DNA from: Streptomyces sp. NBC_01478
Lineage (GTDB): Bacteria; Actinomycetota; Actinomycetes; Streptomycetales; Streptomycetaceae
DNA length: 64,000 nucleotides
Assembly: GCF_036227225.1 (NCBI RefSeq)
Contig: NZ_CP109444.1
Span: forward strand, 2,271,001 to 2,335,000
Direction of reading: 5' to 3'
Made by a program: the position numbers and the translations under genes. The notes under the pieces are model-generated. The model was not told where the DNA came from and searched no databases. It worked only from the letters and a program-made list of their open reading frames with translations. Numbering within the stretch: position 1 is the stretch's first letter; the number at the start of each line of letters is the position of its first letter. This document shows, piece by piece, positions 23,326 through 38,398 of the stretch.

Positions 23326-23362
23326 GGGGGTGTGCCTTTCGTGTGGTCCCTGGCATGGCACC

Positions 23363-23425: not shown

Positions 23426-24094
23426 TCAGCTCTTCGTCACAAGGGACTTGAGCGCGATGTTGAGCTCCAGCACGTTCACCGTCGGCTCACCGATGAAGCC
23501 GAGGGTGCGGCCGTCGGTGTGGTCGTCCACCAGCTTCCGCACCTGGGTGACGGTCAGGCCGTTCTTCTCGGCGATGCGGTGGACCTGGAGGTCCGCGTAC
23601 GCCAGGGAGATGTCCGGGTCGAGACCGGAGCCGGAGGAGGTGACGGCGTCGGCGGGCACCTGGGACGCCTTGACCGTGTAGCCGGGCACCGAGTTGTCCT
23701 TGACGACGGCGGCCTTGGCGTCCTTGACCTGCTGGACGAGGACCTTGCTGTCGGCGGAGAGGTTGGTGGCGCCGGACAGGATCAACGAGTACTGCGTGTT
23801 GATGCTGTTGGTGCCGAGACCGTTCTGCGGGCGGCCCTGGAACCACTTCAGATCCGGATCCGGGGTCTCCTGGCCCTTCTTCAACGGCAGGTTGTACGAC
23901 TGCCCGATCAGGGACGAGCCGACGACCTTGCCGTCCGCCTTGATCTCCGAGCCGTTCGCCTTGCCGGGGAAGACCGCCTGGGCGATGCCGGTGACGACCA
24001 GCGGGTAGATGACGCCCGTCACCAGGGTCAGCACGAGCAGGGCGCGCAGGCCCGCCCAGAGCAACCGGGCTGTGTTGGATACCGAGTTGTTCAT
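23426..24094 (-). CDS. kdpC: Potassium-transporting ATPase subunit KdpC
   Basis: The 222-residue subunit has one N-terminal membrane helix (LLVLTLVTGVIYPLVVTGIAQAVFP) followed by the soluble domain with GSSLIGQSYNLP, FQGRP, SGSGLDPDISLAYADLQVHRIA and VRKLVDDHTDGRTLGFIGEPTVNVLELN, the standard KdpC motifs. It is the accessory subunit of the KdpFABC K+ pump in the cytoplasmic membrane. It follows kdpB by 25 bases and is separated from kdpE by a hairpin. Confidence 0.97.
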   Translation of the reverse strand: MNNSVSNTARLLWAGLRALLVLTLVTGVIYPLVVTGIAQAVFPGKANGSEIKADGKVVGSSLIGQSYNLPLKKGQETPDPDLKWFQGRPQNGLGTNSINTQYSLILSGATNLSADSKVLVQQVKDAKAAVVKDNSVPGYTVKASQVPADAVTSSGSGLDPDISLAYADLQVHRIAEKNGLTVTQVRKLVDDHTDGRTLGFIGEPTVNVLELNIALKSLVTKS

Positions 24095-24119
24095 AGCCGA
24101 TCAGCACGCTTTCAAAAAG

Positions 24120-26246
24120 TTACAGCCCGGGGATGAGGGAGATGAGGAGGTCGATGATCTTGATGCCGATGAAGGGCGCGATCAGCCCGCCGATGCCGTA
24201 GATCGTCAGGTTGCGGCGCAGCATCTTGTCGGCGCTGACCGGCCGGTACTGCACACCCCGCAGGGAGAGCGGCACGAGCGCGATGATGACCAGCGCGTTG
24301 AAGATGACCGCCGACAGGATGGCGGAGTCCGGTGAGGACAGGCCCATCACGTTGAGCTTGTCCAGGCCCGGGTAGACGGCCGCGAACAGCGCCGGGATGA
24401 TCGCGAAGTACTTCGCTACGTCGTTGGCGATCGAGAACGTCGTCAACGCGCCCCGGGTGATGAGGAGTTGCTTGCCGATCTCGACGATCTCGATGAGCTT
24501 GGTCGGGTTCGAGTCGAGGTCGACCATGTTGCCGGCCTCCTTCGCGGCCGACGTGCCGGTGTTCATCGCGACGCCGACGTCCGCCTGGGCCAGCGCGGGC
24601 GCGTCGTTCGTGCCGTCGCCGGTCATCGCGACCAGCTTGCCGCCGGCCTGCTCGCGCTTGATGAGCGCCATCTTGTCCTCGGGAGTGGCCTCCGCGAGGA
24701 AGTCGTCGACGCCGGCCTCGTCCGCGATCGCCTTGGCGGTCAGCGGGTTGTCGCCCGTGATCATGATGGTCTTGATGCCCATGCGGCGCAGCTCGTCGAA
24801 CCGCTCGCGCATGCCCGCCTTGACGACGTCCTTGAGGTGGATGACGCCCAACACCCGTGCGCCTTCGGTGTCTTCGACGGCGACGAGCAGCGGGGTGCCG
24901 CCGGCCGCGGAGATCCGGTCGGTGAGCGCGCCGGCGTCCTCGGACACCTCGCCGCCCCGCTCCCGGACCCAGGTGACGACCGAACCGGCCGCGCCCTTGC
25001 GGATCTTGCGCCCGTCGACGTCCACGCCCGACATACGGGTCTGGGCGGTGAAGGCGATCCACTCGGCGTGGGCCAACTCGCCCTGGTGGCGCTCGCGCAG
25101 GCCGTACTTCTCCTTCGCCAGGACGACGATGGAGCGGCCCTCGGGCGTCTCGTCGGCCAGCGAGGAGAGCTGGGCGGCGTCGGCGAGTTCGGCCTCGGTG
25201 GTGCCGGGGACGGGCACGAACTCGGAGGCCTGGCGGTTGCCGAGGGTGATGGTGCCGGTCTTGTCGAGCAGCAGCGTCGAGACGTCGCCCGCGGCCTCGA
25301 CTGCCCTGCCGGACATGGCCAGTACGTTGCGCTGCACCAGCCGGTCCATGCCCGCGATGCCGATCGCGGAGAGCAGCGCGCCGATCGTGGTCGGGATCAG
25401 ACAGACCAGCAGGGCCACCAGCACGATCAACGTGAGGTGCGTGCCCGCGTAGTCCGCGAACGGCGGCAGGGTCGCCACCGCGAGCAGGAAGACGATGGTG
25501 AGGGACGCCAACAGGATGTTCAGGGCGATCTCGTTGGGCGTCTTCTGCCGGGCGGCGCCCTCGACCAGGGCGATCATCCGGTCGATGAAAGTCTCGCCGG
25601 GCTTCGTCGTGATCTTGATGACGATACGGTCGGAGAGGACCTTCGTACCGCCGGTGACGGCCGAACGGTCGCCGCCGGACTCGCGGATGACGGGCGCGGA
25701 CTCACCGGTGATGGCCGACTCGTCGACACTCGCCACGCCCTCCACGACGTCACCGTCGCCGGGGATGATGTCGCCCGCCTCGCACACGACCAGGTCGCCG
25801 ATGCGGAGTTCGGTGCCGGGGACCTGTTCCTCGACGGTGCCGTTGAGCCGTCGGGCCACCGTGTCGGTCTTGGCCTTGCGCAGGGTGTCGGCCTGCGCCT
25901 TGCCGCGGCCCTCGGCGACGGCCTCCGCGAGGTTGGCGAAGATGACGGTCAGCCACAGCCAGGCGCTGATCGCCCAACCGAACCAGTCGCCAGGGTCCTT
26001 GAAGGAGAAGATCGTGGTCAGCACGGACCCGATCCACACCACGAACATGACGGGCGACTTGACCATCACCCGCGGGTCGAGCTTGCGGCAGGCGTCGGGC
26101 AGGGACTTGATCAGTTGCTTCGGGTCGAACAGACCCGCGCCGACACGTCCCTCTTCCTTGTGACCGGTCGGCACATCGCTGTGCGGCGCCCTGGTCGGAG
26201 TGGCTGTGGACATCGAGTCCTCTTGGTTGTCTGTGCGGGTGCTCAT
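24120..26246 (-). CDS. kdpB: Potassium-transporting P-type ATPase subunit KdpB
   Basis: The 708-residue catalytic subunit has the P-type ATPase signatures: TGES in the actuator domain ([12 protein letters not shown]), the phosphorylation site [21 protein letters not shown] in the nucleotide domain, and [18 protein letters not shown]. It hydrolyses ATP to drive K+ import through KdpA. The ATG at 26246 overlaps the kdpA stop (ATGA), which gives translational coupling; a second ATG 11 codons downstream (MSTATPT) is an alternative start. The C-terminus ends in membrane helices with LISLIPGL. Confidence 0.97.
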
Positions 26247-27907
26247 GACGCCAGCCCCTCGGCCAGCGGTCCCAGCGCCAGCGCCGGGAAGTAGGTCAGA
26301 CCGGTGATGATGAGGATCGCGCCCACCAACAGGCCGGTGAACAGCGGCTTTTCGGTGCGCAGGGTGCCCGCCGTCGCCGGGACCGGCTTCTGCTCGGCGA
26401 GCGAACCGGCCAGCGCCAGCACGAACACCATCGGCAGGAAGCGGCCGAGGACCATCGCGAGTCCGGTCATGGTGTTGAACCAGTCGGTGTTCGCGTTCAG
26501 GCCTGCGAAGGCGGAGCCGTTGTTGTTGGCGGCGGAGGTGAAGGCGTACAGCACCTCGGAGAAGCCGTGCGCGCCGGAGTTCAGCATGGAGTGCGGCGGG
26601 GTCGGCAGCGCCATGGAAGCGGCTGCGAAGATCAGCACCAGGGCCGGGGTGATCAGGATGTAGCAGGCCGCGAGCTTCATCTCGCGGGTGCCGATCTTCT
26701 TGCCCAGGTACTCGGGCGTACGGCCGACCATCAGTCCGGCGATGAACACCGCGATGACCGCCATGATCAGCATTCCGTAGAGGCCGGAGCCGGTACCACC
26801 GGGTGCGATCTCGCCCAACTGCATGCCCAGGATGGTGATTCCGCCGCCGAGCCCGGTGAACGAGGAGTGGAAGGAGTCCACCGCGCCCGTCGAGGTCAGC
26901 GTCGTCGACACCGCGAAGATCGAGGAGGCGCCGACACCGATCCGGGTCTCCTTGCCCTCCATCGCACCGCCGGCGGCCTGGAGCGCCGCGCCGTGGTGGG
27001 CGAACTCGGTCCACATCATGAGGGCCACGAAGCCGACCCAGATGGTGGCCATGGTGGCGAGGATCGCGTAGCCCTGCTTGATCGAGCCGACCATCACGCC
27101 GAAGGTGCGGGTCAGCGCGAACGGGATCACCAGCAGCAGGAAGATCTCGAAGAGGTTCGTGAACGGGGTCGGGTTCTCGAAGGGGTGGGCGGAGTTGGCG
27201 TTGAAGTAACCGCCACCGTTGGTGCCGAACTCCTTGATCGCCTCCTGCGAGGCGACCGCACCGCCGTTCCACTGCTGGTGGCCGCCCATGAACTGACCGA
27301 CCTCGTGAATGCCGGAGAAGTTCTGGATCGCACCGCAGGCGACGAGCACGAGCGCGGCGATGATCGAGCCGGGCACCAGGATGCGGATGACACCGCGCAC
27401 CAAGTCGGCCCAGAAGTTGCCGAGTTCACCGGTACGGGAGCGCGCGAAGCCGCGTACGAGAGCCACCGCGACGGCGATGCCGACGGCCGCGGAGACGAAG
27501 TTCTGCACGGCCAGGCCGGCGGTCTGCACGACGTGACCCATGGTCTGCTCGCCGTAGTACGACTGCCAGTTGGTGTTCGTCACGAACGACACGGCCGTGT
27601 TGAACGACTGCGCCGGGTTGACCGAGGAGAAGCCCAGCGAGCCGGGCAGGATCCCTTGGATGCGCTGGAGCAGATAGAGGAAGAGAACACCGACCGCCGA
27701 GAAGGCGAGCACGCCGCGCAGATACGCGGGCCAGCGCATCTCGGTGTTCGGGTCGGCACCGATGCCCTTGTAGATCCACTTCTCGACACGCCAGTGCTTG
27801 TCGGAGGAGTAGACCCTGGCCATGTAGTTGCCGAGGGGGACGTAGGCGAGCGCCAGCGCCGCTATCAGGGCGATGAGCTGGAGCACACCGGCAAGGACGG
27901 GACCCAT
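26243..27907 (-). CDS. kdpA: Potassium-transporting ATPase K+-channel subunit KdpA
   Basis: The 554-residue subunit is the superfamily-of-K-transporters channel part, with about ten membrane helices and the filter-containing stretches [48 protein letters not shown] and [17 protein letters not shown]. Length equals that of E. coli KdpA (557). It is followed with a four-base overlap by kdpB and preceded by kdpF 7 bases upstream. Confidence 0.97.
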
Positions 27908-28084: not shown

Positions 28085-28157
28085 CGTGAGCTCCTGGAAT
28101 GAGGTTCGGATGGAACGGACGCTTAGAGGTAACCGCGCCCGTGACCGGATATGGCCA

Positions 28158-28210
28158 CCGTTGACGGGTCCCTTACGGCGGCGCATACGCCTTTGACGCG
28201 ACTCTTACGG
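28158..28210 (-). promoter_or_regulatory. Two KdpE-like direct-repeat sites in the kdp promoter
   Basis: Read on the minus strand, CCGTAAGAG-TCG-CGTCAAAGG (28210 to 28190) and CCGTAAGGG-ACC-CGTCAACGG (28178 to 28158) are two near-identical 21-base sites whose starts are 32 bases apart (three turns). Within each, the two halves are 11 bases apart. They lie 74 bases upstream of the first kdp operon gene. The same element occurs at other K+-linked promoters nearby; binding by KdpE is inferred. Confidence 0.7.
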
Positions 28211-28225
28211 CGGGGCGGGGCTTCG

Positions 28226-28560
28226 GCCCGCGAGCGGGGTTCTACGGCGGTGTGGGGCGCCGGCCCGCGAGCGGTTCTCGGCGGCGGCGGTGCCGGCTCG
28301 CGGGCGGTTTCACGGCGGCGTTGACACCCTGCCGCAGGCGGATCCACGGCGCCGCCGGCACCGGTCCACAGCCGGATCTACAACGACACTGGTGCCGGCC
28401 CGGGGGCGGTTCTTCGGCGGCGCTGACGCCCGACCGCAGACGGATCTACGACAGCGCCGGCGCCGGCCCGCGGCGGGTCTGAGCCGAACGTCGGCACCGA
28501 CCCGCAGGCGTTCTACGCCGACGCGGCACCGACCCACGAGCGGCTTTGCACCGACGCCGT
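28226..28560. repeat. Degenerate 33-bp tandem repeat, about ten units
   Basis: Imperfect units of 32-35 bases with the outline CCCGCGAGCGGTTCT-ACGGCGGCG-GTGCCGG run from about 28226 to 28560, with drift between copies. The plus strand can be read as an 11-residue repeat (for example PARGRFHGGVD and PARGRFFGGAD), but no good start or ribosome site exists, and it seems to be non-coding. It fills the gap between the KimA-like gene stop and the kdp promoter. Confidence 0.65.
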
Positions 28561-28634
28561 GCGGCAAGCGCAGGGGCAGGCGCGAGCGCCGCACCCCGGC
28601 GGCGAAACAGTGCGCCCGCACCACACCCCCCGCG

Positions 28635-30467
28635 TCAGAACAGCCGGAATCTCAGCCGGCAGATCACCGCGTCCGTGTCCCGTCGTACGGCATGGGCGAC
28701 GACGGCCCCGCGCTGGTTCTGCAGCAGTCTCTGCCACAGCCGGACGGGCTCCACCTCGGCGATCAGGACGGTGACGCGGGTGTCCGGTTCCGACGCCGAC
28801 ACGTCGCGTACGTACGCGGCGATCGGGCGGCCCAGTGTGCGGCGTTCGCAGGTGAGGCGGACCAGGGGGACGCCGGGGTCCCATTGGGCCCAGGCGCGTT
28901 CCAGGGCGTGGAGGTGGGCCCGGTCCTCGGGGTCGGGGTAGCAGACGGTCACGGCGCGGACCTCGTCGCCGAGGGAGGCGGCGGCCGTCAGCGCCTCGGA
29001 GGTGAGCCGGGTGAGGGAGGAGACGGGCACGATCACTACGGACCGGTCGCGGTGCGGCGGTTCCGGGACACGGCCGAGGCCGAGCCGTTCGCCGATGTGC
29101 GCGTAGGCGCGGTGCACGGTCTCGAAGGCGAGCACGAGCAGCGGCAGGGTGATCACGATCAGCCAGGCGCCCTCCTCGAACTTGCTCGCGGTGACGACGA
29201 TCGCCGCGACACCGGTGAGGATCGCGCCGAAGCCGTTCAGCAGGGCCTTGCCGCGCCAGCCGGTGCCGCGCTCGCCGCGCCAGTGCCGGACCATGCCGAC
29301 CTGGGCGACGGTGAAGCCGACGAAGACGCCGATCGCGAAGAGCGGCACGAGGGTGTTGGTGTCGCCGCCGGAGAAGACCAGCAGGACGGCCGAGACCGCG
29401 GCCAGCGCGAGCACGCCGTGCCGGTGCACCTGGCGGTCGGCCTTGAGGGCGAAGACGTGCGGGAGGTAGTTGTCACGGGCGAGCAGCTTCAGCAGCACCG
29501 GCAGCCCGCCGAAGGACGTGTTCGCGGACAGGGCGAGCAGGATCATCGTCGCGAACTGGATGACGTAGAAAGCCCAGTTGTGGCCGAGGGAGGCGTCCGC
29601 GAGCTGGGCGAGGACGGTGACTCCCTGGACGGGCTGGAGGTGGAAGCGGGAGATCAGGACGGACAGGCCGATCAGCATCACGCCGAGCACCGCGCCGAGG
29701 GCGACCTCCGCGCGCTGGGCCCGCTTCACGCGGGGTGTGCGGAAGGAGGGCACGGCGTTGGCGATGGCCTCGACGCCGGTGAGGGCGCTGCACCCGGAGG
29801 CGAAAGCTTTCAGCAGGAGCAGCACGCCGACGCTTGTGGCGTTGCCGGTCACCACGGACTCGCTGTTGACCCGGTTCACAGGCCCATCGCGGAAAAGGCC
29901 GACCACAATGAGGACGAAGATCGAGCCGACGAACACGACGGTCGGCACGATGAACACCCGCGCCGACTCGGCGATCCCGCGCAGGTTCACACCTGTGAGC
30001 AGTGTCAACACCGCCAGGCAGAGCCACAGCCGTTCACCGTAGAGCGAGGGGAAAGCGGAGGTGAGCGCCGCGACTCCGGCGGTCACGGCCACGGCCACGT
30101 TCAGGACGTAGTCGAGCACCAGCGAGCCCGCCGCCACCAGACTCGTCCGCGCGCCCAGGTGGGTCTTCGCCACCGCGTACGAACCGCCGCCGTCCGGGAA
30201 GGCCGCGATGACCTGCCGGTACGACGCGACGAGCACCGCGAGCAGGGCGGCGATGGCGAGCGTGACCGGCAGGGTGAAGCCGAGCCCGTGCGCACCGGCG
30301 GCGGCCAGCACGAGGACGATCGCCTCGGGACCGTAGGCGACCGACGCCATGGCGTCCAGGGAGAGGGCGGCGAACCCGGCGAGGGCGGTCAGCCGATGGC
30401 GTTCGCCGGTATCCGGGGGCTCCTCGTCGGCTGGCGTCTCGCCCGGCTGGACGGTCAGAACGGTCAT
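28635..30467 (-). CDS. KimA-like APC-family potassium permease
   Basis: The 610-residue protein has about twelve membrane segments then a cytosolic C-terminal domain (from about residue 450, VVIVPVSSLTRLTSEALTAA). Its motifs LSLDAMASVAYGPEAIV, SYRQVIAAFPDGGGSYAVAK and LLLKAFASGCSALTGVEAI follow those of the Bacillus K+ importer KimA (YdaO), and length agrees (607). KimA works as a K+/H+ symporter and is shut by cyclic di-AMP on its C-terminal domain. ATG 30467 is chosen because the upstream extension is Arg-rich shadow. Its neighbours are all K+ genes. No ydaO-type riboswitch is seen in the 120-base leader. Confidence 0.85.
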   Translation of the reverse strand: MTVLTVQPGETPADEEPPDTGERHRLTALAGFAALSLDAMASVAYGPEAIVLVLAAAGAHGLGFTLPVTLAIAALLAVLVASYRQVIAAFPDGGGSYAVAKTHLGARTSLVAAGSLVLDYVLNVAVAVTAGVAALTSAFPSLYGERLWLCLAVLTLLTGVNLRGIAESARVFIVPTVVFVGSIFVLIVVGLFRDGPVNRVNSESVVTGNATSVGVLLLLKAFASGCSALTGVEAIANAVPSFRTPRVKRAQRAEVALGAVLGVMLIGLSVLISRFHLQPVQGVTVLAQLADASLGHNWAFYVIQFATMILLALSANTSFGGLPVLLKLLARDNYLPHVFALKADRQVHRHGVLALAAVSAVLLVFSGGDTNTLVPLFAIGVFVGFTVAQVGMVRHWRGERGTGWRGKALLNGFGAILTGVAAIVVTASKFEEGAWLIVITLPLLVLAFETVHRAYAHIGERLGLGRVPEPPHRDRSVVIVPVSSLTRLTSEALTAAASLGDEVRAVTVCYPDPEDRAHLHALERAWAQWDPGVPLVRLTCERRTLGRPIAAYVRDVSASEPDTRVTVLIAEVEPVRLWQRLLQNQRGAVVAHAVRRDTDAVICRLRFRLF

Positions 30468-30588
30468 GCTGGTGGCTCCTTCACGTACGGACGCGCGGTG
30501 GCGGGAACGCGCGGGTGCGCTCCAGGTTCTGTCCCGTCGCCGCCGGTTTCCCCTTCTCCTTGCGGCTTCTTCGCGCCGAACACGCGTT

Positions 30589-30609
30589 CCTTGACGGGAA
30601 CTTGACGAG
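30589..30609 (-). promoter_or_regulatory. KdpE-like direct repeat before the KimA-like gene
   Basis: On the minus strand CTCGTCAAG-TTCC-CGTCAAGG gives two CGTCAAG halves 11 bases apart, oriented towards the KimA-like gene, 122 bases before its ATG. It belongs to the same motif family as the kdp promoter sites. Confidence 0.65.
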
Positions 30610-30647
30610 CGTGTGACCAGGGCAACCGCCGCCGACCGCTGCGAGGG

Positions 30648-30719
30648 CGTCAAGAACCACCGGACACCCGTCAGAGTCCCGTCAAGGCCGGGCTTCCGTA
30701 CGCCGGGAATCTCTACGGT
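30648..30719 (+). promoter_or_regulatory. KdpE-like sites plus -10 box of a leaderless promoter
   Basis: CGTCAAG at 30648, CGTCAGAG at 30669 and CGTCAAGG at 30680 are spaced 21 and 11 bases. TACGGT (30714-30719) starts 34 bases after the last half-site and ends 7 bases before the ATG at 30727. That spacing puts the transcription start at the start codon. The paralogous gene at 37877 has the same geometry. Confidence 0.65.
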
Positions 30720-30726
30720 CGCCACC

Positions 30727-31242
30727 ATGGGACACCCGCACGACGCAGGGGCGCACGATCGACGGTGGGCGCGGGACCTGCGCGACACGTTCCGCTGCGC
30801 GGGCGCGCTGCTCGGACTCCTGCTGCTCGTCGACCAGTTCAGCGGTCGGCTCACCCTCTGGCGCGCCGCGCTCTGGTTCGCCGTGGCACTGCTGCTCTTC
30901 GTGGTGCTCTACCCGGCACGGGTCCGGGCGGGCGCGGGCTGGCTCTCCTCGCGCGGGCTGCTGCGTGAACGACACGTGCGCACGGACCGGCTCGTGTCGG
31001 TGCGGTGTCTGGACGGGGTCTCTCAACGGTTGTTGCTGCGGGACGAGTTCGGGGGCCGGGTCGAGATCGACCCCGATGTGCTGGTCAACAACCCCGATGT
31101 GTGGCACCTGTTGGCCGAGGGCTCCCGCCGGTCCCTCGACTCCGGCACGCTGACCTGCGGGGCGACCGCGCTGCGCCGGATCGCGGAACGCGTCGAGCGC
31201 GAGACCGCGGAGACCGTGTTCAAGGTGTCCGGCCTGGAGTAG
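30727..31242 (+). CDS. Two-helix membrane protein of unknown function (paralogue A)
   Basis: The 171-residue protein has a basic N-terminus, two close hydrophobic helices (CAGALLGLLLLVDQF and AALWFAVALLLFVVLYPARV, about residues 27-65) and a soluble C-terminal part that looks like a small beta-domain (GWLSSRGLLRERHVRTDRLVSVRCLDG, LLLRDEFGGRVEIDPDVLVNNPDVW), similar in outline to membrane-linked PH-like domains. A paralogue lies at 37877 with matching motifs (WLTVDGPLLRRTVHTDALTVVRQYGD, LDPRVLVANPLLW). Both carry KdpE-like promoter repeats and sit among K+ transport genes; a role as K+ or turgor accessory protein is inferred. Its 3' end overlaps kdpD2 by 23 bases. Confidence 0.85.
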   Translation: MGHPHDAGAHDRRWARDLRDTFRCAGALLGLLLLVDQFSGRLTLWRAALWFAVALLLFVVLYPARVRAGAGWLSSRGLLRERHVRTDRLVSVRCLDGVSQRLLLRDEFGGRVEIDPDVLVNNPDVWHLLAEGSRRSLDSGTLTCGATALRRIAERVERETAETVFKVSGLE

Positions 31243-33769
31243 CCACCACTGTTGAAGCTGAGGGGTCCGCCCATTCGGCCAGCGGCAACGACACGACCAT
31301 CGTCAGACCACCCCCCGGTGTGTCCTCAGGAGTGAGCGTCCCGTTCATCGCCTCGGTGAGGCCGCGCGCGAGGGCGAGTCCCAGCCCGAGGCCGGTGGTG
31401 TTGTCCGTGTCGCCGAGCCGCTGGAACGGCTCAAAGAGACGCTCGCGGCCGGTAGTTGGAAGCCCGGGCCCTCGGTCCACGACCCTCAACTCCACTCTCC
31501 CGCCCAGCGCGCTGGCGGTGACCATGACCCGGCGCCCGGCCGGGGTGTGCCGGGCCGCGTTGCCGGCCAGGTTGGCGATCACACGCTCCAGCAGCGGCGG
31601 ATCGACGAGCACCGGCGGAATAGACTCCACGTCCCGCAGATCCACGTCGGGCACGTCGGCGAGCGCCATCGGCAGCACCTCCTCCAGGCTGGTGGCCCGC
31701 AGGTTCAGCGGGAGCGCGCCCGCCTCCAGGCGGCTCAAGTCGAGGAGGTTCTCCAGCAGCCGGTTCAGCTTGGCCATGGACTCGTCGGCGGTGGCGAGGA
31801 GTTCGTCCCGGTCCTCGTCCGAGAACTCCACGTCCCGCCCGCGCAGCGAGGTGACGGCCGCCCAGCCCGCCGCGAGCGGTGTCCGCAGATCGTGTCCTAC
31901 GGCCCGCAGCAGCGCCGTACGCAGCCGGTCGGCGGCCTTCACCGGCTCTATCTCGGCGGCTGCTTCGGCGAGTTGGGCCCGTTCGACGGCGGAGCCGACG
32001 TGGGCGGCGAAGGCGGCCAGGACGCGCCGTTCCGAGGAGGAGAGGGTGCGTCCGCGCAGGACGAGGAAGGCGCCGGGGCCGGCCGGGACGGTGGTGACAC
32101 CACTGCCGACCTCGTGGTCCGGTGGTTCGTCGACGAGTTCGGCCGACTCGGTGCCGAAGGTCTCGCGGGTGCGTTCCAAGAGGGCCGGGATCGTCTGGCC
32201 GCCGCGCACGATGCTGCCCGCGAGGGAGGACATGGTCTCGGCCTCGGCGGTGGCACGGGCCGAGCGCCGGGACAGTCGTAGCGAACGGTCGACGACGGCG
32301 GCCACGGTGGCCGCCACCACCGTGAACACCCCTAGCGCGAGAAGGGCGTTGGGGTCGTCCAGGGTGAACTGCCCGATGGGCGGGATGAACCAGTAGTTGA
32401 GCAGCACCGAGGCCGTCAACGACGCGATGACCGCCGAGGTGACACCGCCTATGCAGGCGACCCCGACCACGGCGAGCAGGAACAGCAGGGCCTCGCTGGT
32501 GAGGTTGACCGTGCCGCGCACCTGGGCGAGGCAGACGGTGAGCAGCACCGGCAGCACAAGTCCCGCTACGGGACCGGCAATCAGCCGTGCCGTCGAGAGG
32601 GTACGGCGGCGGGAGGGCAGCAGGGTGCCGCGTCCGGCGCGCTCGTGGGTGACCCGGTGGACGTCGATGTCGCCGGACAGTTCAGTCACCGTCTCGCCGG
32701 TGCCGGGCCCGGTCAGGAACCGCTCGAACCGGCCCCGGCGGCTGGTGCCGAGGACGAGTTGGGTGGCGTTCTCGGTGCGGGCGAACTCGACCAGGGCGGT
32801 GGCGACGCCGTCGCCGACCACCGAGTGGTAGCTGCCGCCGAGGTCCTCGACGAGCCTGCGCTGCCGGGCGAGCGAGGCGTGCGACACCCCGGCGGCGAGT
32901 CCGTCGCTGCGGGCCACGTGCACGGCGAGCAGGTCACCGCCGGCGATGGGGGTCCCCCCGGTCGAGCGAAGCCGAGAGTGGGGGAGGTCGGCGATGCGGG
33001 CGGCCCGCCGGATGAGTGTGTCGCCCTCCGGGCCGCCGGTCAGCGCGACGACCACCCGTTCCCGGATCTCCCACACCCCGCCGATGGCGTGCTCGGCACG
33101 ATACGTATGCAGCGCCTCGTCGACCCGGTCGGCGACCCACAGCAGCGCCAACTGCCGCAGCGCGGTGAGGTTTCCGGGCCGGAAGTAGTTGGCGAGAGCC
33201 GCGTCGATCTTCTCGGGCGTGTAGATGTTGCCGTGCGCCATGCGCCGCCGCAGTCCCTCGGGCGGCATGTCGATCAGCTCGATCTGCTGGGCCCGGCGGA
33301 CGACGTCGTCGGGCACCGTCTCGTGCTGCGGCACCCCGGTGATCTTCTCGACGACGTCCTTGAGGGAGGCGAGATGCTGCACGTTGACGGCGGTGACGAC
33401 GTCGATGCCGGCGGTGAGCAGTTCGTCGACGTCCTGCCAGCGCTTGGCGTTGCGTCCGCCGCCGGGCACGTTGCTGTGCGCGAACTCGTCGACGACGGCC
33501 ACCTCCGGGCGCCGTTCGAGGACCGCCGCGAGGTCCATCTCCTCGAACTCCCCGCCCCGGTAGGCGCATTGGGTCCGCGCCACGACCTCCAGGCCGTCGA
33601 GCATCGCCTCGGTGCGGGGGCGCCCGTGGCACTCGGCGAAGCCCACCACCACATCGGCGCCGCGAGCGGCCCGGCGCCGTGCCTCGTCGAGCATGCGGTA
33701 GGTCTTGCCGACACCCGGGGCCGCCCCGAGGTAGACCTTCAGCCGTCCGCGTCGCAGTACGTCGTTCAT
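31220..33769 (-). CDS. Second KdpD-type sensor kinase without KdpE partner
   Basis: The 849-residue protein repeats the whole KdpD architecture: GAAPGVGKTYRMLDEARRRA, VDEFAHSNVPGGGRNAKRW, universal-stress-protein-like domain, four membrane segments with DUF4118, then VGHDLRTPLAAGW and VVDRGPGLP plus GLGLGLALARG in the kinase. All key residues are kept, so it should be active. No response-regulator gene is next to it, so it may signal to the KdpE encoded at 22642. ATG 33769 with GGGAGG 5 bases upstream is the start; the longer frame would swallow the KdpE-like site at 33841. The 3' end overlaps paralogue A by 23 bases. Confidence 0.9.
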   Translation of the reverse strand: MNDVLRRGRLKVYLGAAPGVGKTYRMLDEARRRAARGADVVVGFAECHGRPRTEAMLDGLEVVARTQCAYRGGEFEEMDLAAVLERRPEVAVVDEFAHSNVPGGGRNAKRWQDVDELLTAGIDVVTAVNVQHLASLKDVVEKITGVPQHETVPDDVVRRAQQIELIDMPPEGLRRRMAHGNIYTPEKIDAALANYFRPGNLTALRQLALLWVADRVDEALHTYRAEHAIGGVWEIRERVVVALTGGPEGDTLIRRAARIADLPHSRLRSTGGTPIAGGDLLAVHVARSDGLAAGVSHASLARQRRLVEDLGGSYHSVVGDGVATALVEFARTENATQLVLGTSRRGRFERFLTGPGTGETVTELSGDIDVHRVTHERAGRGTLLPSRRRTLSTARLIAGPVAGLVLPVLLTVCLAQVRGTVNLTSEALLFLLAVVGVACIGGVTSAVIASLTASVLLNYWFIPPIGQFTLDDPNALLALGVFTVVAATVAAVVDRSLRLSRRSARATAEAETMSSLAGSIVRGGQTIPALLERTRETFGTESAELVDEPPDHEVGSGVTTVPAGPGAFLVLRGRTLSSSERRVLAAFAAHVGSAVERAQLAEAAAEIEPVKAADRLRTALLRAVGHDLRTPLAAGWAAVTSLRGRDVEFSDEDRDELLATADESMAKLNRLLENLLDLSRLEAGALPLNLRATSLEEVLPMALADVPDVDLRDVESIPPVLVDPPLLERVIANLAGNAARHTPAGRRVMVTASALGGRVELRVVDRGPGLPTTGRERLFEPFQRLGDTDNTTGLGLGLALARGLTEAMNGTLTPEDTPGGGLTMVVSLPLAEWADPSASTVVATPGRTP

Positions 33770-33840
33770 CGCCTCCCAGAGAAGCGCTCCGCAGGCCTCC
33801 AGGCAGGCTTCTTGATGCGTCCCTGGCGCTGCCCGCAGGG

Positions 33841-33861
33841 ACGTTGACACTGTCTTGACGG
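33841..33861. promoter_or_regulatory. KdpE-like direct repeat between kdpD2 and the antiporter gene
   Basis: On the minus strand CCGTCAAG-ACAG-TGTCAAC has halves 11 bases apart. It is 72 bases upstream of the kdpD2 start and 61 bases before the divergent antiporter ATG. In the plus direction TTGACGG is followed by TAGGGT (33875-33880), a good Streptomyces -10 box, so both genes could be controlled from it. Confidence 0.6.
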
Positions 33862-33921
33862 CGCCCGGCCGGGTTAGGGTGAGCGCGGTGTGCCGGGAAG
33901 TCTGGTCGGCGGGGAGTCCAC

Positions 33922-35526
33922 ATGGGCTCGTCCAAGCCCCAGGGGGACGGCATGCGCGGCGTCGGTACGGTTCTCGCTCTCGTGGTACTGGCGACGCTGG
34001 TGGCGACGTTCGCCCGCCGGTGGCGCATCCCCGCGCCCTCCCTCCTCGTGGTCGCCGGTCTCTCCGTGGCCCTGCTGCCGGGCACCCCGGCGATCGAGAT
34101 CAGCCCCGATGTGATCGGCCTGGTCGTCCTGCCGCCGCTCCTCTACGCCAGCGCCGAGGACATGTCGTGGCGCGAGCTGAAGGCGGTGTGGAAGCCGGTC
34201 GGGATCCTCGCGATCGGCCTGGTCCTCGCGTCCGCGGCGGCGGTGGGCTGGGTGGCGTCCACGGTGACCCCGCTGTCCTGGCAGATGGCGCTCGTGCTCG
34301 GCGCGGTCCTCGCCAGCACCGACCCGGTCGCCGTCACCGCGCTGGGCCGCCGGCTCGCGCTGCCGCCCCGGGTCCAGGTGCTCGTCCAGGCGGAGTCCCT
34401 GTTCAACGACGCGACCTCGCTGGTCCTGTTCCGGGTCGCGGTGAGCATCGCCGTGGCCTCGGCGGCGGCCAACTGGGGCGCGGCGGGCGGTGAGTTCGTG
34501 GTGCTCGCGGGCGGCGGCACGGTCATCGGGGCGGCCGTCGCCTACGTCGTGACACTGATCCGGCGGCACACCGAGGACCCGGTCCTGGAGACGGTGATCG
34601 CCCTGGTCACGCCGTACGCGGCCTACGTCCTCGCGGAGGGCGCCCACACGTCCGGCGTGACCTCGGTCGTGGTCGCCGGGGTCGTCCTGGGCGGTCACGG
34701 CGACCGACTCACCAACGCCCGCATCCGGCTCCAACTGAACGCCGTCTACGGCACGGTGGTGTTCCTGCTGGAGAGCGTGGTGTTCTCGTTGATCGGGCTG
34801 GCGCTGCCCGCGCAGGTGCAAGCCCTGTCCGACGGCGACCGGGCCTGGCCGCTGTACGCGTTCGCGGTGGCGGGCACCCTGATCGCCGTACGACTGCTGT
34901 GGCTGGCGCCGCTGTCGGCGGTGCTGCAGCGCAAGGGCGGGACGCACCGGGTGAACTGGCGGGTGCCGATGGTACTGACCTGGGCGGGCACCCGGGGTGT
35001 CCTTCCCCTGGCGGCGGCCCTGTCGATCCCCGAGGTCACGAAGACCGGCGCCGCGCTGCCCGACCGCCCCCTGGTCCTCGTCCTGACCACCTCGGTCGTC
35101 GTGGTCACCCTGGTGGTCCAGGGATTCACCCTGGCCCCCGTCGTCCGCCGCTCCGGCATCGCCCTCGAACCCGACCACACGGAACGCGAAGAGGCCTCCG
35201 CCCGCTGCCACTTGGCCGACGCGGGCATCCGCCGCCTCGACGAACTCGCCGAGCTGGAGGCCGTGCCGGACGTCGTCCTCGACCGACTCCGCCGCGGTCT
35301 CAACGCCCGCCTCGACGACGCCCGAGACCGCCTCTCCGAGAACAACGGCCACGTGTCCCACACGGAGTCCGCCGACCTGGTCTACCGCCAACTCCGCCGC
35401 GACCTGATCGCCGTGGAGACGGTGGAACTACAGCGCCTCTACGACGATCACGCCATCAGCGACACGACCCGCAGGCGGCTCCAGCGGTCGCTGGACCTGG
35501 AGGAGGCGAGGCTGGCGGACGTGTGA
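33922..35526 (+). CDS. CPA1-family Na+/H+ antiporter
   Basis: The 534-residue protein has about twelve membrane helices with the CPA1/NhaP ion-site motifs VLASTDPVAVTALGRRL and AESLFNDATSLVLFRVA, plus VTSVVVAGVVLGG and WAGTRGVLPLAAALSIP. A C-terminal cytosolic tail of about 130 residues (LDELAELEAVPDVVLDRL onward) is helical and probably regulatory. It exchanges Na+ or K+ for protons. ATG 33922 is used; a second ATG at 33952 fits the family start better and may be the true one. It is divergent from kdpD2. Confidence 0.9.
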   Translation: MGSSKPQGDGMRGVGTVLALVVLATLVATFARRWRIPAPSLLVVAGLSVALLPGTPAIEISPDVIGLVVLPPLLYASAEDMSWRELKAVWKPVGILAIGLVLASAAAVGWVASTVTPLSWQMALVLGAVLASTDPVAVTALGRRLALPPRVQVLVQAESLFNDATSLVLFRVAVSIAVASAAANWGAAGGEFVVLAGGGTVIGAAVAYVVTLIRRHTEDPVLETVIALVTPYAAYVLAEGAHTSGVTSVVVAGVVLGGHGDRLTNARIRLQLNAVYGTVVFLLESVVFSLIGLALPAQVQALSDGDRAWPLYAFAVAGTLIAVRLLWLAPLSAVLQRKGGTHRVNWRVPMVLTWAGTRGVLPLAAALSIPEVTKTGAALPDRPLVLVLTTSVVVVTLVVQGFTLAPVVRRSGIALEPDHTEREEASARCHLADAGIRRLDELAELEAVPDVVLDRLRRGLNARLDDARDRLSENNGHVSHTESADLVYRQLRRDLIAVETVELQRLYDDHAISDTTRRRLQRSLDLEEARLADV

Positions 35527-35664
35527 CGCGGCGGGACTCCCGCCGTGGTGACGCTCGGTGTCCACCACCCCCGACCGCCCGCCCAAGCCCCCCATACAGC
35601 CCAACGCACCCCGAACCGCTCCCGGCCACCCGTTCCTGATGCGCCGCTTCCGCTCACCCCGCCA

Positions 35665-35685
35665 GTCTTAACGGAAGATTGACGC
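35665..35685. promoter_or_regulatory. KdpE-like direct repeat before the second APC permease
   Basis: TCTTAACGG-AAGA-TTGACGC has TTAACGG and TTGACGC 11 bases apart; on the minus strand it reads GCGTCAAT-CTTC-CGTTAAG. It lies 111 bases upstream of the ATG at 35796, in the reverse orientation compared with the kdp sites. This is the weakest copy. Confidence 0.5.
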
Positions 35686-35795
35686 TCACGGCCCCTCCAT
35701 CCATGGGCCCACGCGTCACTCTCCGCTTACGCTGGTGCCGCCGTCCGCGTGATGGCCACAGACCACACGCTGACCCGCAGCTCAGGAGCACGCCG

Positions 35796-37757
35796 ATGGC
35801 CACCACCGAACACCCTCCGCCCAGTCGCCTGCGCGCCTGGATGCTGGAGGGGCTGGCCGACATGGGCAAGGGCGGCACGCACGCTGCTCAGGCCGCGCCG
35901 GAACCGGAGCAGCCCGCCCACCAGGGCCAGCGCTGGTGGCGGGTGATGTGCCTGACCGGCGTCGACTACTTCTCCACCCTCGGCTACCAGCCCGGCATCG
36001 CGGCCCTGGCCGCCGGTCTGCTGTCGCCGGTGGCGACCATCGTGCTCGTGCTGGTCACTCTCTTCGGCGCCCTGCCCGTGTACCGCCGGGTGGCCGAGGA
36101 GAGCCCGCACGGCGAGGGCTCCATCGCGATGCTGGAGCGGCTGCTGTCGTTCTGGAAGGGCAAGCTGTTCGTCCTGGCCCTGCTCGGCTTCGCCGCGACC
36201 GACTTCCTGATCACCATCACTCTTTCGGCGGCGGACGCCTCCACTCACCTGGTGGAGAACCCGCACTTCACGAGTGTGCTGCACGACAAGCAGATGCTGA
36301 TCACCCTGATCCTGGTCGCCCTGCTGGGCGCGGTGTTCCTCAAGGGCTTCCTGGAGGCGATCGGCGTCGCGGTGTACCTGGTGGTGGCCTACCTGGCGCT
36401 CAACACCGTGGTCGTGGTCGTCGGCATGTGGCACGTGGCCACCGAGGGGCATGTCGTCACCGACTGGACCAGTGCCCTGACCACCGAGCACGGCAATGTC
36501 TTCGCCATGGTCGGCGTCTCCCTGCTGGTCTTCCCCAAGCTGGCGCTCGGCCTGTCCGGCTTCGAGACCGGCGTGGCCGTCATGCCGCACGTCGAGGGCG
36601 ACCCCGACGACACCGAGCAGAATCCGAAGGGCCGGATCCGGGACACCAAGAAACTGCTGACGGCCGCCGCGCTCATCATGAGCGTGTTCCTGATCGCGAC
36701 CAGCTTCATCACCACCGTGCTCATCCCGGAGAAGGAGTTCAAGTCCGGCGGCCAGGCCAACGGACGTGCGCTGGCGTACCTCTCGCACGAATACCTCGGC
36801 AACGCCTTCGGCACGGTCTACGACTTCTCCACCATCGCCATCCTGTGGTTCGCCGGCGCCTCCGCGATGGCCGGCCTGCTCAACCTGATGCCGCGCTACC
36901 TGCCCCGGTACGGCATGGCCCCGCACTGGGCCCGCGCGGTGCGTCCGATGGTGATCGTCTTCACCCTGATCGGGTTCCTGGTCACCTGGATCTTCGACGC
37001 CGACGTCGACGCCCAGGGCGGCGCCTACGCCACCGGCGTCCTGGTCCTGATGTCCTCCGCCGCGATCGCGGTGACCATCGCCGCCCGCCGCGCCCAGCAG
37101 CGCAACTGGACCATCGGCTTCGCGGCCGTGTCCGCGGTCCTGCTCTACGTCACGGTCGCCAACGTCATCGAGCGCCCGGACGGTGTGAAGATCGGCGCCT
37201 GCTTCATCGCCGGCATCATCCTGGTCTCCCTGCTGTCCCGGCTGGCCCGCGCCTTCGAACTCCGCGTGACCAGTGTGACCTTCGACGACATGGCGGAACG
37301 ATTCATCCGCGACATCGCCAGCCGCAAGATCCGCTTCATCGCCAACGAACCCGACCGCCGCGACAAGGCCGAGTACCGGGAGAAGATCGAACAGATCCGC
37401 AACGACAACGATCTGCCCGAGCAAGAGGACTTCGTCTTCGTCGAGGTGACGGTCCTCGACGCCTCCGAGTTCGAGGCGGGCCTGACCGTGCGCGGCGAGG
37501 TCCTCCACAACCGCTACCGGGTCCTGACCCTGGAGTCCTCCTCCATCCCCAACGCCCTGGCCGCACTGCTCCTCAACGTCCGCGACACGACGGGCTGCAC
37601 CCCGCACATGTACTTCGAGTGGACCGAGGGCAATCCGTTCGCCAACTTCCTCCGCTTCTTCCTCTTCGGCCAGGGCGAGGTCGCCCCGGTCACCCGCGAG
37701 GTCCTGCGCGAGGCGGAACCGGACCGGACGCGGCGCCCGCGCGTGCACACCGGCTGA
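35796..37757 (+). CDS. APC-superfamily permease with cytosolic C-terminal domain
   Basis: The 653-residue protein has about twelve membrane segments: [25 protein letters not shown] marks the first helix with the unwound APC core, and [18 protein letters not shown] the sixth. A C-terminal soluble domain of about 160 residues ([24 protein letters not shown] to [13 protein letters not shown]) has no name known to me. It is annotated in relatives as an amino acid permease, but its position in a K+ gene set with a KdpE-like site suggests an ion substrate. ATG 35796 has AGGAG 8 bases upstream, which removes the longer frame. Confidence 0.85.
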
Positions 37758-37786
37758 CCGTTCGAGGGCGCCCGAGCGGACGTCAC

Positions 37787-37869
37787 CGTAAGAGACACGA
37801 CAAAATCCGGTCCCGCAGCGTAAGAGCCCCGTCAGCGGCCCGCGCACCACGCTCCCGGCGCCCTACGGT
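37787..37869 (+). promoter_or_regulatory. Two KdpE-like repeats plus -10 box of a leaderless promoter
   Basis: CGTAAGAG-ACA-CGACAAA (from 37787) and CGTAAGAG-CCC-CGTCAGC (from 37819) are 32 bases apart, the same distance as the pair at kdp. TACGGT at 37864-37869 starts 34 bases after the last half-site (37830) and ends 7 bases before the ATG at 37877, the same geometry as paralogue A. Confidence 0.65.
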
Positions 37870-37876
37870 CGGCCTC

Positions 37877-38398
37877 ATGCGGCACAGCACCCCACCACCG
37901 GACCCGACCGGCGACCGCCACTGGCGCGGCGACGCCCGACTGGCGACGGGCTGCGCGCTCGGCTTCCTCGGCCTGACCCTGCTGGTCGACCGGGAAGCGG
38001 GAACCCTGACCCTGACCCGCGCGCTGCTGTGGTTCGCCCTGTCGGCGCTGCTGTTCGTCGTCCTGCTGCCGCACCGGGTCACCGCGGGTCCCGGCTGGCT
38101 CACCGTGGACGGCCCGCTGCTGAGGCGCACGGTGCACACGGACGCGCTGACCGTCGTACGACAGTACGGCGACGTGTCCGCACGCCTGGTCCTGCGGGAC
38201 GCGCACGGACATTGGCTCGAACTGGACCCCCGGGTGCTGGTCGCCAACCCCCTGCTCTGGCACGAGCTGGACACGGGCATACGGCGCTCGATGGAACGCG
38301 GCACACTGCGCCAGGGCACCGATGTCCGGCGTCACCTGGGCCATCTGATCGACGACGAGACGGCGCGGTCGGTGCTCAGGGCTTCGGGGATTTCCTGA
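37877..38398 (+). CDS. Two-helix membrane protein of unknown function (paralogue B)
   Basis: The 173-residue protein is the sibling of the one at 30727: two N-terminal hydrophobic helices (LATGCALGFLGLTLLVD and ALLWFALSALLFVVLLPHRV) and a soluble part with GPGWLTVDGPLLRRTVHTD, LVLRDAHGHWLELDPRVLVAN and a helical tail DDETARSVLRASGIS. The start is fixed by the -10 box 7 bases upstream, implying a leaderless transcript. It follows the APC permease gene by 119 bases but has its own KdpE-like promoter. Its last 23 bases overlap the end of the DUF1707 gene on the other strand. Confidence 0.85.
   Translation: MRHSTPPPDPTGDRHWRGDARLATGCALGFLGLTLLVDREAGTLTLTRALLWFALSALLFVVLLPHRVTAGPGWLTVDGPLLRRTVHTDALTVVRQYGDVSARLVLRDAHGHWLELDPRVLVANPLLWHELDTGIRRSMERGTLRQGTDVRRHLGHLIDDETARSVLRASGIS

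What the first reader, a model, noticed from the sequence alone, without database searches (positions are those of the whole stretch)
28158..37840. KdpE-like direct-repeat operator shared by K+ transport promoters
Sites of the form CGTnAnG-N4-CGTCAnG, with halves 11 bp apart, occur before kdp (two, 32 bp apart), the KimA-like permease, both two-helix membrane proteins, and between kdpD2 and the antiporter; a weaker one precedes the APC permease. The 11-bp direct repeat is the hallmark of OmpR/PhoB-type regulators, and KdpE of this type is encoded in the same block. This would define a whole KdpE regulon in one place, including genes of unknown function.
Basis: partly seen in the sequence, partly recalled or inferred. 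Interest (0 to 1): 0.85.

Follow-up and report, generated by a model that had tools for sequence, protein, structure and literature searches.

The report
KdpE operator of Streptomyces potassium regulon
A repeated DNA switch, very probably bound by the potassium-starvation regulator KdpE, sits in front of a set of potassium-uptake and companion genes here and in many Streptomyces, and it also marks an unexpected lysine-making gene.

Summary
The sites are real.

The full operator is a double site: four CGTMAR half-sites at 0, 11, 32 and 43. At most one mismatch allowed, it occurs in 128 of 199 sampled Streptomyces genomes; the reversed control occurs in 2.

KdpE is the likely binder. The published minimal KdpE site of Mycobacterium smegmatis contains CGTAA-N6-CATCA. 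It scores 19.2 bits in register; none of 200,000 random 22-mers does. The five sampled genomes without KdpE have no operator.

The regulon is larger than one block: kdpFABC, kimA, two paralogous 2TM proteins, kdpD2, a second K+ block 8 Mb away, GlnX-like genes, and SAV_915 plus a second lysine gene (lysA2). The sodium/proton antiporter is probably not a direct target. The 653-aa permease has a conserved but inverted site.

Some operators (kimA, kdpD2) are degenerate and missed by a genome-wide profile. Binding and activation in Streptomyces are untested.

The parts
28191..28209 (-). kdpFABC operator, distal pair CGTAAGAGTCGCGTCAAAG
   Evidence: matrix 24.8 bits, rank 3 of window; double site 28159-28209 scores 50.3; profile E=7e-10 in whole genome
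28159..28177 (-). kdpFABC operator, proximal pair CGTAAGGGACCCGTCAACG, 32 bp downstream of the distal pair
   Evidence: matrix 25.5 bits, rank 2; kdpA orthologues have the site in 37 of 37 entries from KdpE-anchored loci
28126..28131 (-). candidate -10 box TACCTC of kdpFABC
   Evidence: read from the sequence; 35 nt after the start of the proximal CGTCA; a T-rich box (TTTnCT) is conserved there in 77 kdpA sites, though only 3 of the 77 have TAnnnT
22642..23361 (-). kdpE, OmpR-type response regulator (proposed binder; ORF end to end, the true start may lie further in)
   Evidence: Response_reg + Trans_reg_C; KdpE is the best NCBIfam model, 235 bits, below its cut-off of 325; PDB KdpE 4kny 210 bits
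20094..22640 (-). kdpD1, sensor kinase
   Evidence: KdpD, Usp, DUF4118, HisKA, HATPase_c
23426..27907 (-). kdpC, kdpB, kdpA
   Evidence: Pfam (KdpC, E1-E2 ATPase, KdpA); TIGR00680 kdpA 669 bits
27915..28004 (-). kdpF (29 aa)
   Evidence: translation; name and start assigned by eye
30589..30607 (-). kimA operator, distal pair CGTCAAGTTCCCGTCAAGG
   Evidence: 22.4 bits, rank 4; kimA orthologues 16 of 20 entries
30557..30575 (-). kimA operator, degenerate proximal pair
   Evidence: 32 bp downstream of the distal pair; all 10 kimA loci printed have a similar sequence ending CGCAAGGA; double score 21.0
28635..30467 (-). KimA-like K+ symporter (610 aa)
   Evidence: PDB KimA 6s3k 406 bits
30669..30687 (+). 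operator of 2TM protein 1, proximal pair CGTCAGAGTCCCGTCAAGG
   Evidence: 25.8 bits, rank 1; orthologues 14 of 14 single
30637..30655 (+). operator of 2TM protein 1, degenerate distal pair
   Evidence: double score 23.5; double site above the 99% level in 8 of 14 orthologues
30714..30719 (+). -10 box TACGGT of 2TM protein 1; ATG follows 7 nt later, so probably leaderless
   Evidence: sequence; offset 34 from the proximal CGTCA, as in other sites
30727..31242 (+). 2TM protein 1, with PH-like domain (171 aa)
   Evidence: family alignment and model
33842..33860 (-). kdpD2 operator, distal pair CGTCAAGACAGTGTCAACG
   Evidence: 18.8 bits, rank 6; kdpD2 orthologues 14 of 14 single and double, same orientation
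33810..33828 (-). kdpD2 operator, degenerate proximal pair
   Evidence: double score 32.1
31220..33769 (-). kdpD2, second KdpD-type kinase without an adjacent response regulator
   Evidence: Pfam; ATG start chosen by eye
35666..35684 (-). inverted operator upstream of the 653-aa permease, CGTCAATCTTCCGTTAAGA
   Evidence: 15.0 bits; present in reverse orientation in 9 of 9 orthologues at -127 to -159; aligned with a conserved -10 TACGCT
35796..37757 (+).
37787..37805 (+). operator of 2TM protein 2, distal pair CGTAAGAGACACGACAAAA
   Evidence: 14.9 bits
37819..37837 (+). operator of 2TM protein 2, proximal pair CGTAAGAGCCCCGTCAGCG
   Evidence: 20.7 bits, rank 5; double 35.7; orthologues 6 of 6
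37864..37869 (+). -10 box TACGGT of 2TM protein 2; ATG 7 nt later
   Evidence: sequence; offset 34; TAnnnT at 34-36 in 8 of 8 TM2b sites elsewhere
37877..38398 (+). 2TM protein 2, with PH-like domain (173 aa)
33922..35526 (+). Na+/H+ antiporter a_cpa1 type; probably not a direct target
   Evidence: TIGR00831 341 bits; forward operator in 1 of 12 entries

Best explanation
The sites are operators of KdpE. Each full operator has four half-sites CGTMAR at 0, 11, 32 and 43. One KdpE dimer would bind each 11-bp direct repeat; the two dimers, 32 bp (about three helical turns) apart, would sit on the same face of the DNA just upstream of the -35 region. Where a -10-like box can be seen it begins 34-36 nt after the last CGTCA begins, so the two pairs would lie near -82 and -50, as expected for an OmpR/PhoB-type activator. 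Under K+ limitation phosphorylated KdpE (kinase KdpD1, perhaps also KdpD2) would switch on kdpFABC, kimA, the two 2TM proteins with a PH-like domain, kdpD2 (positive feedback) and, outside the window, a second K+ block, GlnX-like genes, a Usp gene and SAV_915-lysA2. Shown here: sequence, positions, conservation, association with genes and with KdpE. Inferred: binding, activation, signal, start sites, helical-phase argument.
For: Window ranks with an independent matrix. Whole-genome profile search: ten best hits all at regulon genes. Genus: 128 of 199 genomes against 2 with the reversed control. Inner gap 16 in 47 of 68 hits when 6-36 were allowed (tallied in 43). Named genomes: of 119 non-redundant exact double sites, 99 of 112 in Actinomycetota lie within 1.5 kb upstream, same strand, of a regulon gene, 96 of them within 400 nt; random positions in the same loci do so in 24% (5,457 of 22,400); outside Actinomycetota 0 of 7. 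40 loci chosen by KdpE and not by the motif, counted as entries: kdpA 37/37, GlnX 9/9, TM2b 6/6, kdpD2 14/14, TM2a 14/14, kimA 16/20; in-operon genes kdpC 0/37, kdpB 0/42. M. smegmatis KdpE minimal site in register. No operator in the 5 genomes without KdpE. TAnnnT at offset 34-36 in 32 of 60 non-kdpA sites, about 0.02 per offset elsewhere. The three residues that matter for DNA binding in E. coli KdpE (R193, R200, T215, abstract passage of PMC3264566) align to R207, R214 and T229 of the window KdpE (alignment with 6lgq; numbering mapped by eye after removing its tag).
Against: No binding or expression data for any Streptomyces KdpE. 66 of 194 KdpE-bearing genomes have no double site at <=1 mismatch, so operators are often weaker or single. 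The profile search does not recover the window's kimA, kdpD2 or permease operators above background. TAnnnT at 34-36 is seen in 35 of 137 sites overall, only 3 of 77 kdpA, 0 of 7 GlnX, 1 of 8 lysA2 and 0 of 4 kdpD sites. Of all 165 non-redundant sites with <=1 mismatch in the non-own loci 28 have no regulon gene. The five KdpE-free genomes are few and one (G197) is 81% complete. A review reports as unpublished data that KdpDE is not needed by S. venezuelae for development on standard sporulation medium or for growth on 0.5 M NaCl or KCl (PMC10117811, passages). The query families SAV_915, LysA2, GlnX, TM2 and Usp were chosen because they stand next to sites in this genome, so their counts are partly circular; the Kdp genes alone account for 61 of 119. 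The E. coli site fits only as the reverse complement and only in part.
Confidence: 0.84

Rival explanations
1. Another OmpR-family regulator (MtrA, GlnR or AfsQ1) binds these repeats; boxes of the GTnAC type are direct repeats with the same 11-bp period.
For: GTnAC-n6-GTnAC and GtnAcC-n5-GTnAcn boxes are reported for GlnR and MtrA (PMC10704036 and PMC13189361, passages); the AfsQ1 box is recalled, not read. The period is identical and GTMA is shared. GlnR sites can also hold four half-sites.
Against: The sixth base of our half-site, which the search pattern left free, is A or G in 530 of 548 half-sites and C in 3, where GTnAC boxes need C. 'kdp' and 'potassium' do not occur in the main text of the 2026 MtrA paper. 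The four half-sites of the GlnR box are evenly 11 bp apart; here the pairs are 21 bp apart. Targets are K+ genes, not nitrogen or development genes.
Confidence: 0.08
2. The operators are KdpE sites, but KdpE represses at some of them or at high K+, so the regulon is bidirectional.
For: The permease site is inverted in 9 of 9 genomes and, from the predicted -10, sits about 14 bp further out than a normal proximal pair (measured by eye); an inverted, displaced site need not activate.
Against: Where a -10 is visible the other operators have a fixed activator-like distance to it, and KdpE activates kdpFABC in M. smegmatis (abstract passage of PMC5401905).
Confidence: 0.15
3. Only the kdp and kimA operators are functional; the others are relics of a duplicated and reshuffled K+ island.
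For: The genome carries two K+ blocks with paralogous genes; K+ genes shuffle their order between species.
Against: kdpD2, TM2a, TM2b and GlnX orthologues keep their operators in 14/14, 14/14, 6/6 and 9/9 entries, with TAnnnT at 34-36 for TM2b in 8 of 8.
Confidence: 0.07
4. Chance: CGTCA is a common word in a 69% GC genome.
Against: Controls and the ranking.
Confidence: 0.01

Closest known systems
KdpE operator of Mycobacterium smegmatis PkdpF (PMC5401905; abstract passage, other passages and section 20 seen)
   Same: CGTAA-N6-CATCA, an 11-bp direct repeat in the same register; upstream of kdpFABC; KdpE activates
   Different: One 22-bp site at one promoter, and the kdpDE promoter was not bound; 'direct repeat' does not occur in the main text; here a double site and many targets
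KdpE site of E. coli kdpFABC (PMC3264566; abstract and other passages seen)
   Same: Two half-sites with 11-bp period (TTTATA-N5-TTTACA); one KdpE DNA-binding domain per half-site
   Different: AT-rich; resembles CGTMAR only when read on the other strand (TGTAAA-N5-TATAAA, my inference); a single pair
GlnR a-b-a-b box and MtrA box of Streptomyces (PMC10704036, PMC13189361; passages seen)
   Same: OmpR-family direct repeats with 11-bp period; GlnR boxes can have four half-sites
   Different: C as last base of GTnAC; half-sites evenly spaced; nitrogen and development targets
K+ replacement by cationic amino acids in Bacillus subtilis (PMC5573677; passages seen)
   Same: Cells short of K+ grow if given lysine, ornithine, citrulline or arginine (also glutamate)
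   Different: There by suppressor mutations in arginine synthesis or by feeding; here a dedicated second lysA appears to be wired to the K+ regulator (inference)

Membership tests
KdpDE/KdpFABC potassium system | kdpFABC genes with KdpD kinase and OmpR-type KdpE | tested here: met
   Pfam and NCBIfam: KdpA, KdpC, P-type ATPase, KdpD, response regulator; kdpF by eye
KdpDE/KdpFABC potassium system | KdpE reaches the curated KdpE cut-off | tested here: not met
   NF007820 is the best of 104 models but 235 bits against a cut-off of 325; the cut-off probably fits enterobacterial KdpE (my reading)
KdpE operator | Resembles an experimentally mapped KdpE site | tested here: met
   M. smegmatis minimal site scores 19.2 bits; 0 of 200,000 random 22-mers reach it at either GC content tried
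KdpE operator | Bound by KdpE in vitro | not testable with these tools
   needs EMSA or footprint
KdpE regulon | Operators absent where KdpE is absent | tested here: met
   0 of 5 genomes without KdpE (E <= 1e-60) against 128 of 194 with it, p = 0.005; only five such genomes, one 81% complete
OmpR/PhoB-type direct-repeat operator | Direct repeat with 11-bp period near -35 | tested here: met
   repeat; position only from predicted -10 boxes, no mapped start site
GTnAC box of MtrA, GlnR, AfsQ1 | C as last base of GTnAC | tested here: not met
   C at the sixth base of CGTMAR in 3 of 548 half-sites
KimA K+ symporter (window 28635-30467) | Full-length match to KimA | tested here: met
   6s3k residues 20-587, 406 bits
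KimA K+ symporter (window 35796-37757) | Match to KimA or AA_permease | tested here: inconclusive
   no Pfam, NCBIfam or PDB match at E <= 0.001
Diaminopimelate decarboxylase (lysA2, outside window) | Curated lysA cut-off reached and active-site motifs kept | tested here: met
   TIGR01048 435.6 bits, cut-off 297.9, for the copy at 9.19 Mb; YAAKAFLC and HCExGD aligned with 1hkv (motif roles recalled)
GlnX family (outside window) | Curated cut-off NF058618 | tested here: not met
   242.2 and 247.7 bits, cut-off 250, hence 'GlnX-like'
PH domain (2TM proteins) | Fold match to PH domains | tested here: inconclusive

The most novel reading that the evidence does not exclude
KdpE in actinomycetes commands a whole 'do without potassium' programme. 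Besides K+ pumps it drives a second, dedicated diaminopimelate decarboxylase (lysA2, usually behind a SAV_915 gene) so that lysine made in the cell replaces K+ as counter-ion. The link would be old: the same double operator stands before a lysA2-type gene in Streptomyces, Microbispora (followed by kimA), Rhodococcus and Prescottella, and before a more distant lysA-like gene in Antrihabitans. The PH-like 2TM proteins would be new partners or brakes of the K+ transporters.
Probability: 0.35. Interest if true: 0.82.

Novelty: new variant of a known kind. Interest (0 to 1): 0.64.

Why it matters
[quoted passage not shown] This gives a precise operator, its geometry and a target list that can be tested in a laboratory strain at once. 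It puts the M. smegmatis site in the same class, gives first functional leads for unknown families (2TM proteins with a PH-like domain, SAV_915, an orphan second KdpD), and proposes a link between K+ starvation and lysine synthesis.

Tried and rejected
Single-pair pattern in the whole genome (CGTNANNNNNNCGTCA): 90 hits, reversed control 39, so only clusters and pairs stand out. Antiporter as a direct target: forward operator in 1 of 12 entries, reverse in 12 of 12, which I read as the operator of kdpD2 or another divergent neighbour. GTnAC regulators: rejected on the sixth base. Ordinary direction for the permease operator: 1 of 9 forward, 9 of 9 reverse. Phylum-wide scan with <=1 mismatch: 14 of 296 genomes; of the 8 outside Streptomyces 7 have KdpA, KdpD or KimA beside the site and 1 is a tandem repeat without; among the Streptomyces hits of that scan three loci (L213, L214, L221) had no match to any query. 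This exact form is therefore mostly streptomycete.

Sites without a regulon gene. Of 119 non-redundant exact sites 20 have none: 7 outside Actinomycetota (Photobacterium, Gemmatimonadaceae, Chloroflexi, Thiohalomonas, Paraburkholderia, Prevotella, Victivallales) and 13 inside (L118, L126, L134, L140, L142, L160, L174, L185, L188, L191, L199, L206, L207). Of the 13, L134, L140 and L191 (the last two the same contigs as L218 and L219) have KdpD or KimA genes nearby, L118 precedes a BioF-like gene, L207 lies at the edge of the stretch held, L174 is a tandem repeat (same contig as L215) and L185 is a Gordonia locus with no K+ gene seen. An earlier tally (95 of 112) had dropped seven sites shared with other loci; one search replaces it. 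At <=1 mismatch 137 of 165 sites in all non-own loci have a target; in the loci, 27 of 29 (none: L032, L058). Of 29 loci from the profile search, 5 had no assigned target; two of these (L317, L324) have kdpA beside the site but my script mis-set strand or position.

Literature: nine searches. The listings shown held no paper on a Streptomyces KdpE regulon, on KdpE with a diaminopimelate decarboxylase as target, or on this repeat. That covers open-licence PMC papers only, and listings were capped. A M. tuberculosis study gives 85 genes that fall only without K+ in kdpDE mutants (PMC12210973, passages and section 8); its tables were not read.
Full report
WHERE AND WHAT. The window is positions 2,271,001-2,335,000 of a 12.12-Mb single-contig Streptomyces-like chromosome. 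A close named relative among the loci compared is S. prunicolor (kdpA 98%, kimA 96%). The block reads, minus strand, kdpD1, kdpE, kdpC, kdpB, kdpA, kdpF, then kimA (-), 2TM protein 1 (+), kdpD2 (-), a Na+/H+ antiporter (+), a 653-aa permease (+) and 2TM protein 2 (+). KimA is the 610-aa protein at 28635-30467 (PDB 6s3k, 406 bits); the 653-aa permease matches nothing in Pfam, NCBIfam or PDB. The two 2TM proteins are paralogues (48% identity).

IS THE MOTIF REAL? I therefore collected operator sites from other genomes, built a matrix from 136 of them that stand before a regulon gene, and scanned the window. Rank 7 is unrelated (54089); ranks 8 and 9 are the permease site and a second site before 2TM protein 2. 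Dropping near-identical loci (132 sites left) or all kdpA sites (59 left) keeps the same sites on top.

THE UNIT IS A DOUBLE SITE. A single-pair pattern in the whole genome shows repeated pairs exactly 32 bp apart. The pattern CGTMA-N6-CGTCA-N16-CGTMA-N6-CGTCA with up to 3 mismatches has 14 hits in 12.1 Mb, 2 in the reversed control; all 9 with at most one mismatch are at K+ or companion genes. In 199 Streptomyces genomes, this one included, 128 have it (223 operators); the control is found in 2. When the inner gap may be 6-36, 47 of 68 hits in 121 genomes have 16; 9 have 6 and 9 have 15, several of these being simple tandem repeats or another repeat family; the control gives 5. The half-site extends to CGTMAR: the sixth base was free in the pattern, yet A or G in 530 of 548.

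PROMOTER GEOMETRY. TAnnnT begins 34-36 nt after the start of the last CGTCA in 32 of 60 non-kdpA sites (SAV_915 20 of 21, TM2b 8 of 8) and hardly anywhere else; kdpA has it in 3 of 77, GlnX in 0 of 7 and lysA2 in 1 of 8. At the same place kdpA promoters share TTTnCT and GlnX-like ones CAGACT (consensus). In the window TACGGT lies at offset 34 before both 2TM genes with ATG 7 nt later, so leaderless messages are likely. Where one pair has decayed its remnant often keeps the 32-bp register: kimA and kdpD2, both with a degenerate proximal pair.

WHOLE GENOME. A sequence-only profile finds ten hits at E <= 6.3e-4, all at regulon genes: kdp and kdp-2, 2TM protein 2 and its copy, 2TM protein 1, the second kimA, a GlnX-like gene, both SAV_915-lysA2 operons and a Usp gene; the eleventh has E = 0.012. 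It does not separate the weaker operators from background: the GlnX-like gene at 9.22 Mb has E = 0.024, kdpD2 2.7, kimA 4.4, and the permease site is not listed. In 61 genomes 47 have a hit at E <= 0.001.

INDEPENDENT FOOTPRINT. I fetched 40 regions chosen by KdpE position, not by the motif, and scored 400 bp upstream of each orthologue against the 99% level of 1,600 random stretches. Sites in gene direction, counted per entry: kdpA 37/37 (double 36/37), GlnX 9/9, TM2b 6/6, kdpD2 14/14, SAV_915 2/2, TM2a 14/14 (double 8/14), kimA 16/20, Usp 2/3. Genes inside operons: kdpC 0/37, kdpB 0/42, kdpE 2/50, lysA2 0/2. kdpD has one in 7 of 33, the 7 being the loci L256-L262 whose gene order differs. 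The antiporter has 1/12. Some matrix training sites come from the same genomes.

THE INVERTED SITE. Upstream of the 653-aa permease the site is reversed in 9 of 9 genomes, at -127 to -159, with second half CGTTAAG in 8 of 9. Aligned, the ten promoters (window included) keep the operator and a TACGCT -10 at constant distance. In several genomes a divergent operator-bearing gene is near; in L253, as here, the upstream neighbour is the antiporter in tandem, so it is probably not a mere shared operator. What KdpE does there is open.

WHO BINDS? KdpE of M. smegmatis binds a minimal 22-mer CCGTAAAGAAACCATCAAGGCC (PMC5401905, section 20). It contains CGTAA-N6-CATCA. My matrix, which never saw it, gives 19.2 bits at exactly that register; 0 of 200,000 random 22-mers and 0 of 100,000 shuffles of the site reach this. 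Of 199 genomes 194 have KdpE (E <= 1e-60); the five without have no operator (Fisher p = 0.005). Genomes with a KdpE close to the window's (a cut I set after seeing the list) have more operators: mean 2.02 in 43, this genome included, against 0.90 in 151; p = 4e-7. Relatedness between genomes was not corrected for. E. coli KdpE half-sites also have an 11-bp period (PMC3264566). The GTnAC boxes of GlnR and MtrA share the period but need C where ours has a purine.

BEYOND STREPTOMYCES. They hold 119 non-redundant sites. In Actinomycetota 99 of 112 precede a regulon gene within 1.5 kb on the same strand, against 24% of random positions in the same loci; outside, 0 of 7. Targets: kdpA 55, SAV_915 14, TM2b 8, GlnX 6, lysA2 6, others 10; genes of the Kdp system alone 61. 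Genera outside Streptomyces with kdpA as target: Oerskovia, Isoptericola, Geodermatophilus, Prauserella, Nocardioides, Kineococcus, Saccharothrix, Rhodococcus.

THE LYSINE LINK. SAV_915, mostly followed by lysA2, is after kdpA the commonest target (14 of 119, with 6 more sites directly before a lysA2-type gene). This genome has two lysA2 copies (75% alike), a 182-aa fragment 99% like one of them, and a separate lysA 47-50% like them. Rhodococcus, Prescottella and Microbispora genes with the operator are nearer to lysA2 (52-62%) than to that lysA (46-50%); whether those genomes also have an ordinary lysA was not searched. In Microbispora kimA follows directly. B. subtilis short of K+ grows on lysine, ornithine, citrulline or arginine (PMC5573677). 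I infer that KdpE-driven lysA2 supplies a cation; cell-wall change is an alternative.

VERDICT. It is a new variant of a known kind: a KdpE operator with four half-sites and a broad, partly unexpected target set.

Noticed in passing
window 35626-35830; L224, L232, L236, L242, L243, L245, L247, L250, L253: Leader of the 653-aa permease holds a second conserved stretch (GCCGTCCGCGTGATGGCC, exact in 8 of 10 sequences aligned) just after the -10; perhaps a leader peptide or RNA element.
   Followed up: partly
window 28001-28084 (-): A 27-aa hydrophobic peptide ([27 protein letters not shown]) is encoded between the kdp operator and kdpF.
   Followed up: no
L004:18287-19954(-) and L019; also L106, L150: A KdpB-like P-type ATPase gene with no kdpA or kdpC seen beside it, divergent from a GlnX-like gene or behind its own double operator (TIGR01497 866 bits for the copy in this genome).
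   Followed up: partly
G000:C1:10.65-10.69 Mb (L004-L006): A second K+ block with kdp, kimA, kdpD2, antiporter, 2TM genes, permease, GlnX-like and SAV_915-lysA2 genes.
   Followed up: yes
G083:C133:42866, G096:C131:17549, G010:C2:1355902, G104:C1:2109784, L003:8201: Another repeat family, CGTCAAATGAGCGTCA..15..CGTCATTTCAGCGTCA, recurs in several Streptomyces genomes; in this genome a variant lies near a 1703-codon gene. No K+ gene was seen beside the copy in this genome.
   Followed up: no
L004:15401-16840(-); L118:3240-4580(+): A BioF/serine-palmitoyltransferase-like gene near K+ genes has an operator-like site upstream (weak here, exact in S. caeruleatus).
   Followed up: partly
L154:186-3748: In Microbispora corallina one operator precedes a lysA2-type gene directly followed by kimA.
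   Followed up: partly
G048:C25:4929-4979 (L320): A good operator match has no K+ gene beside it; the next gene downstream looks like a UbiE/MenG methyltransferase (by eye).
   Followed up: no
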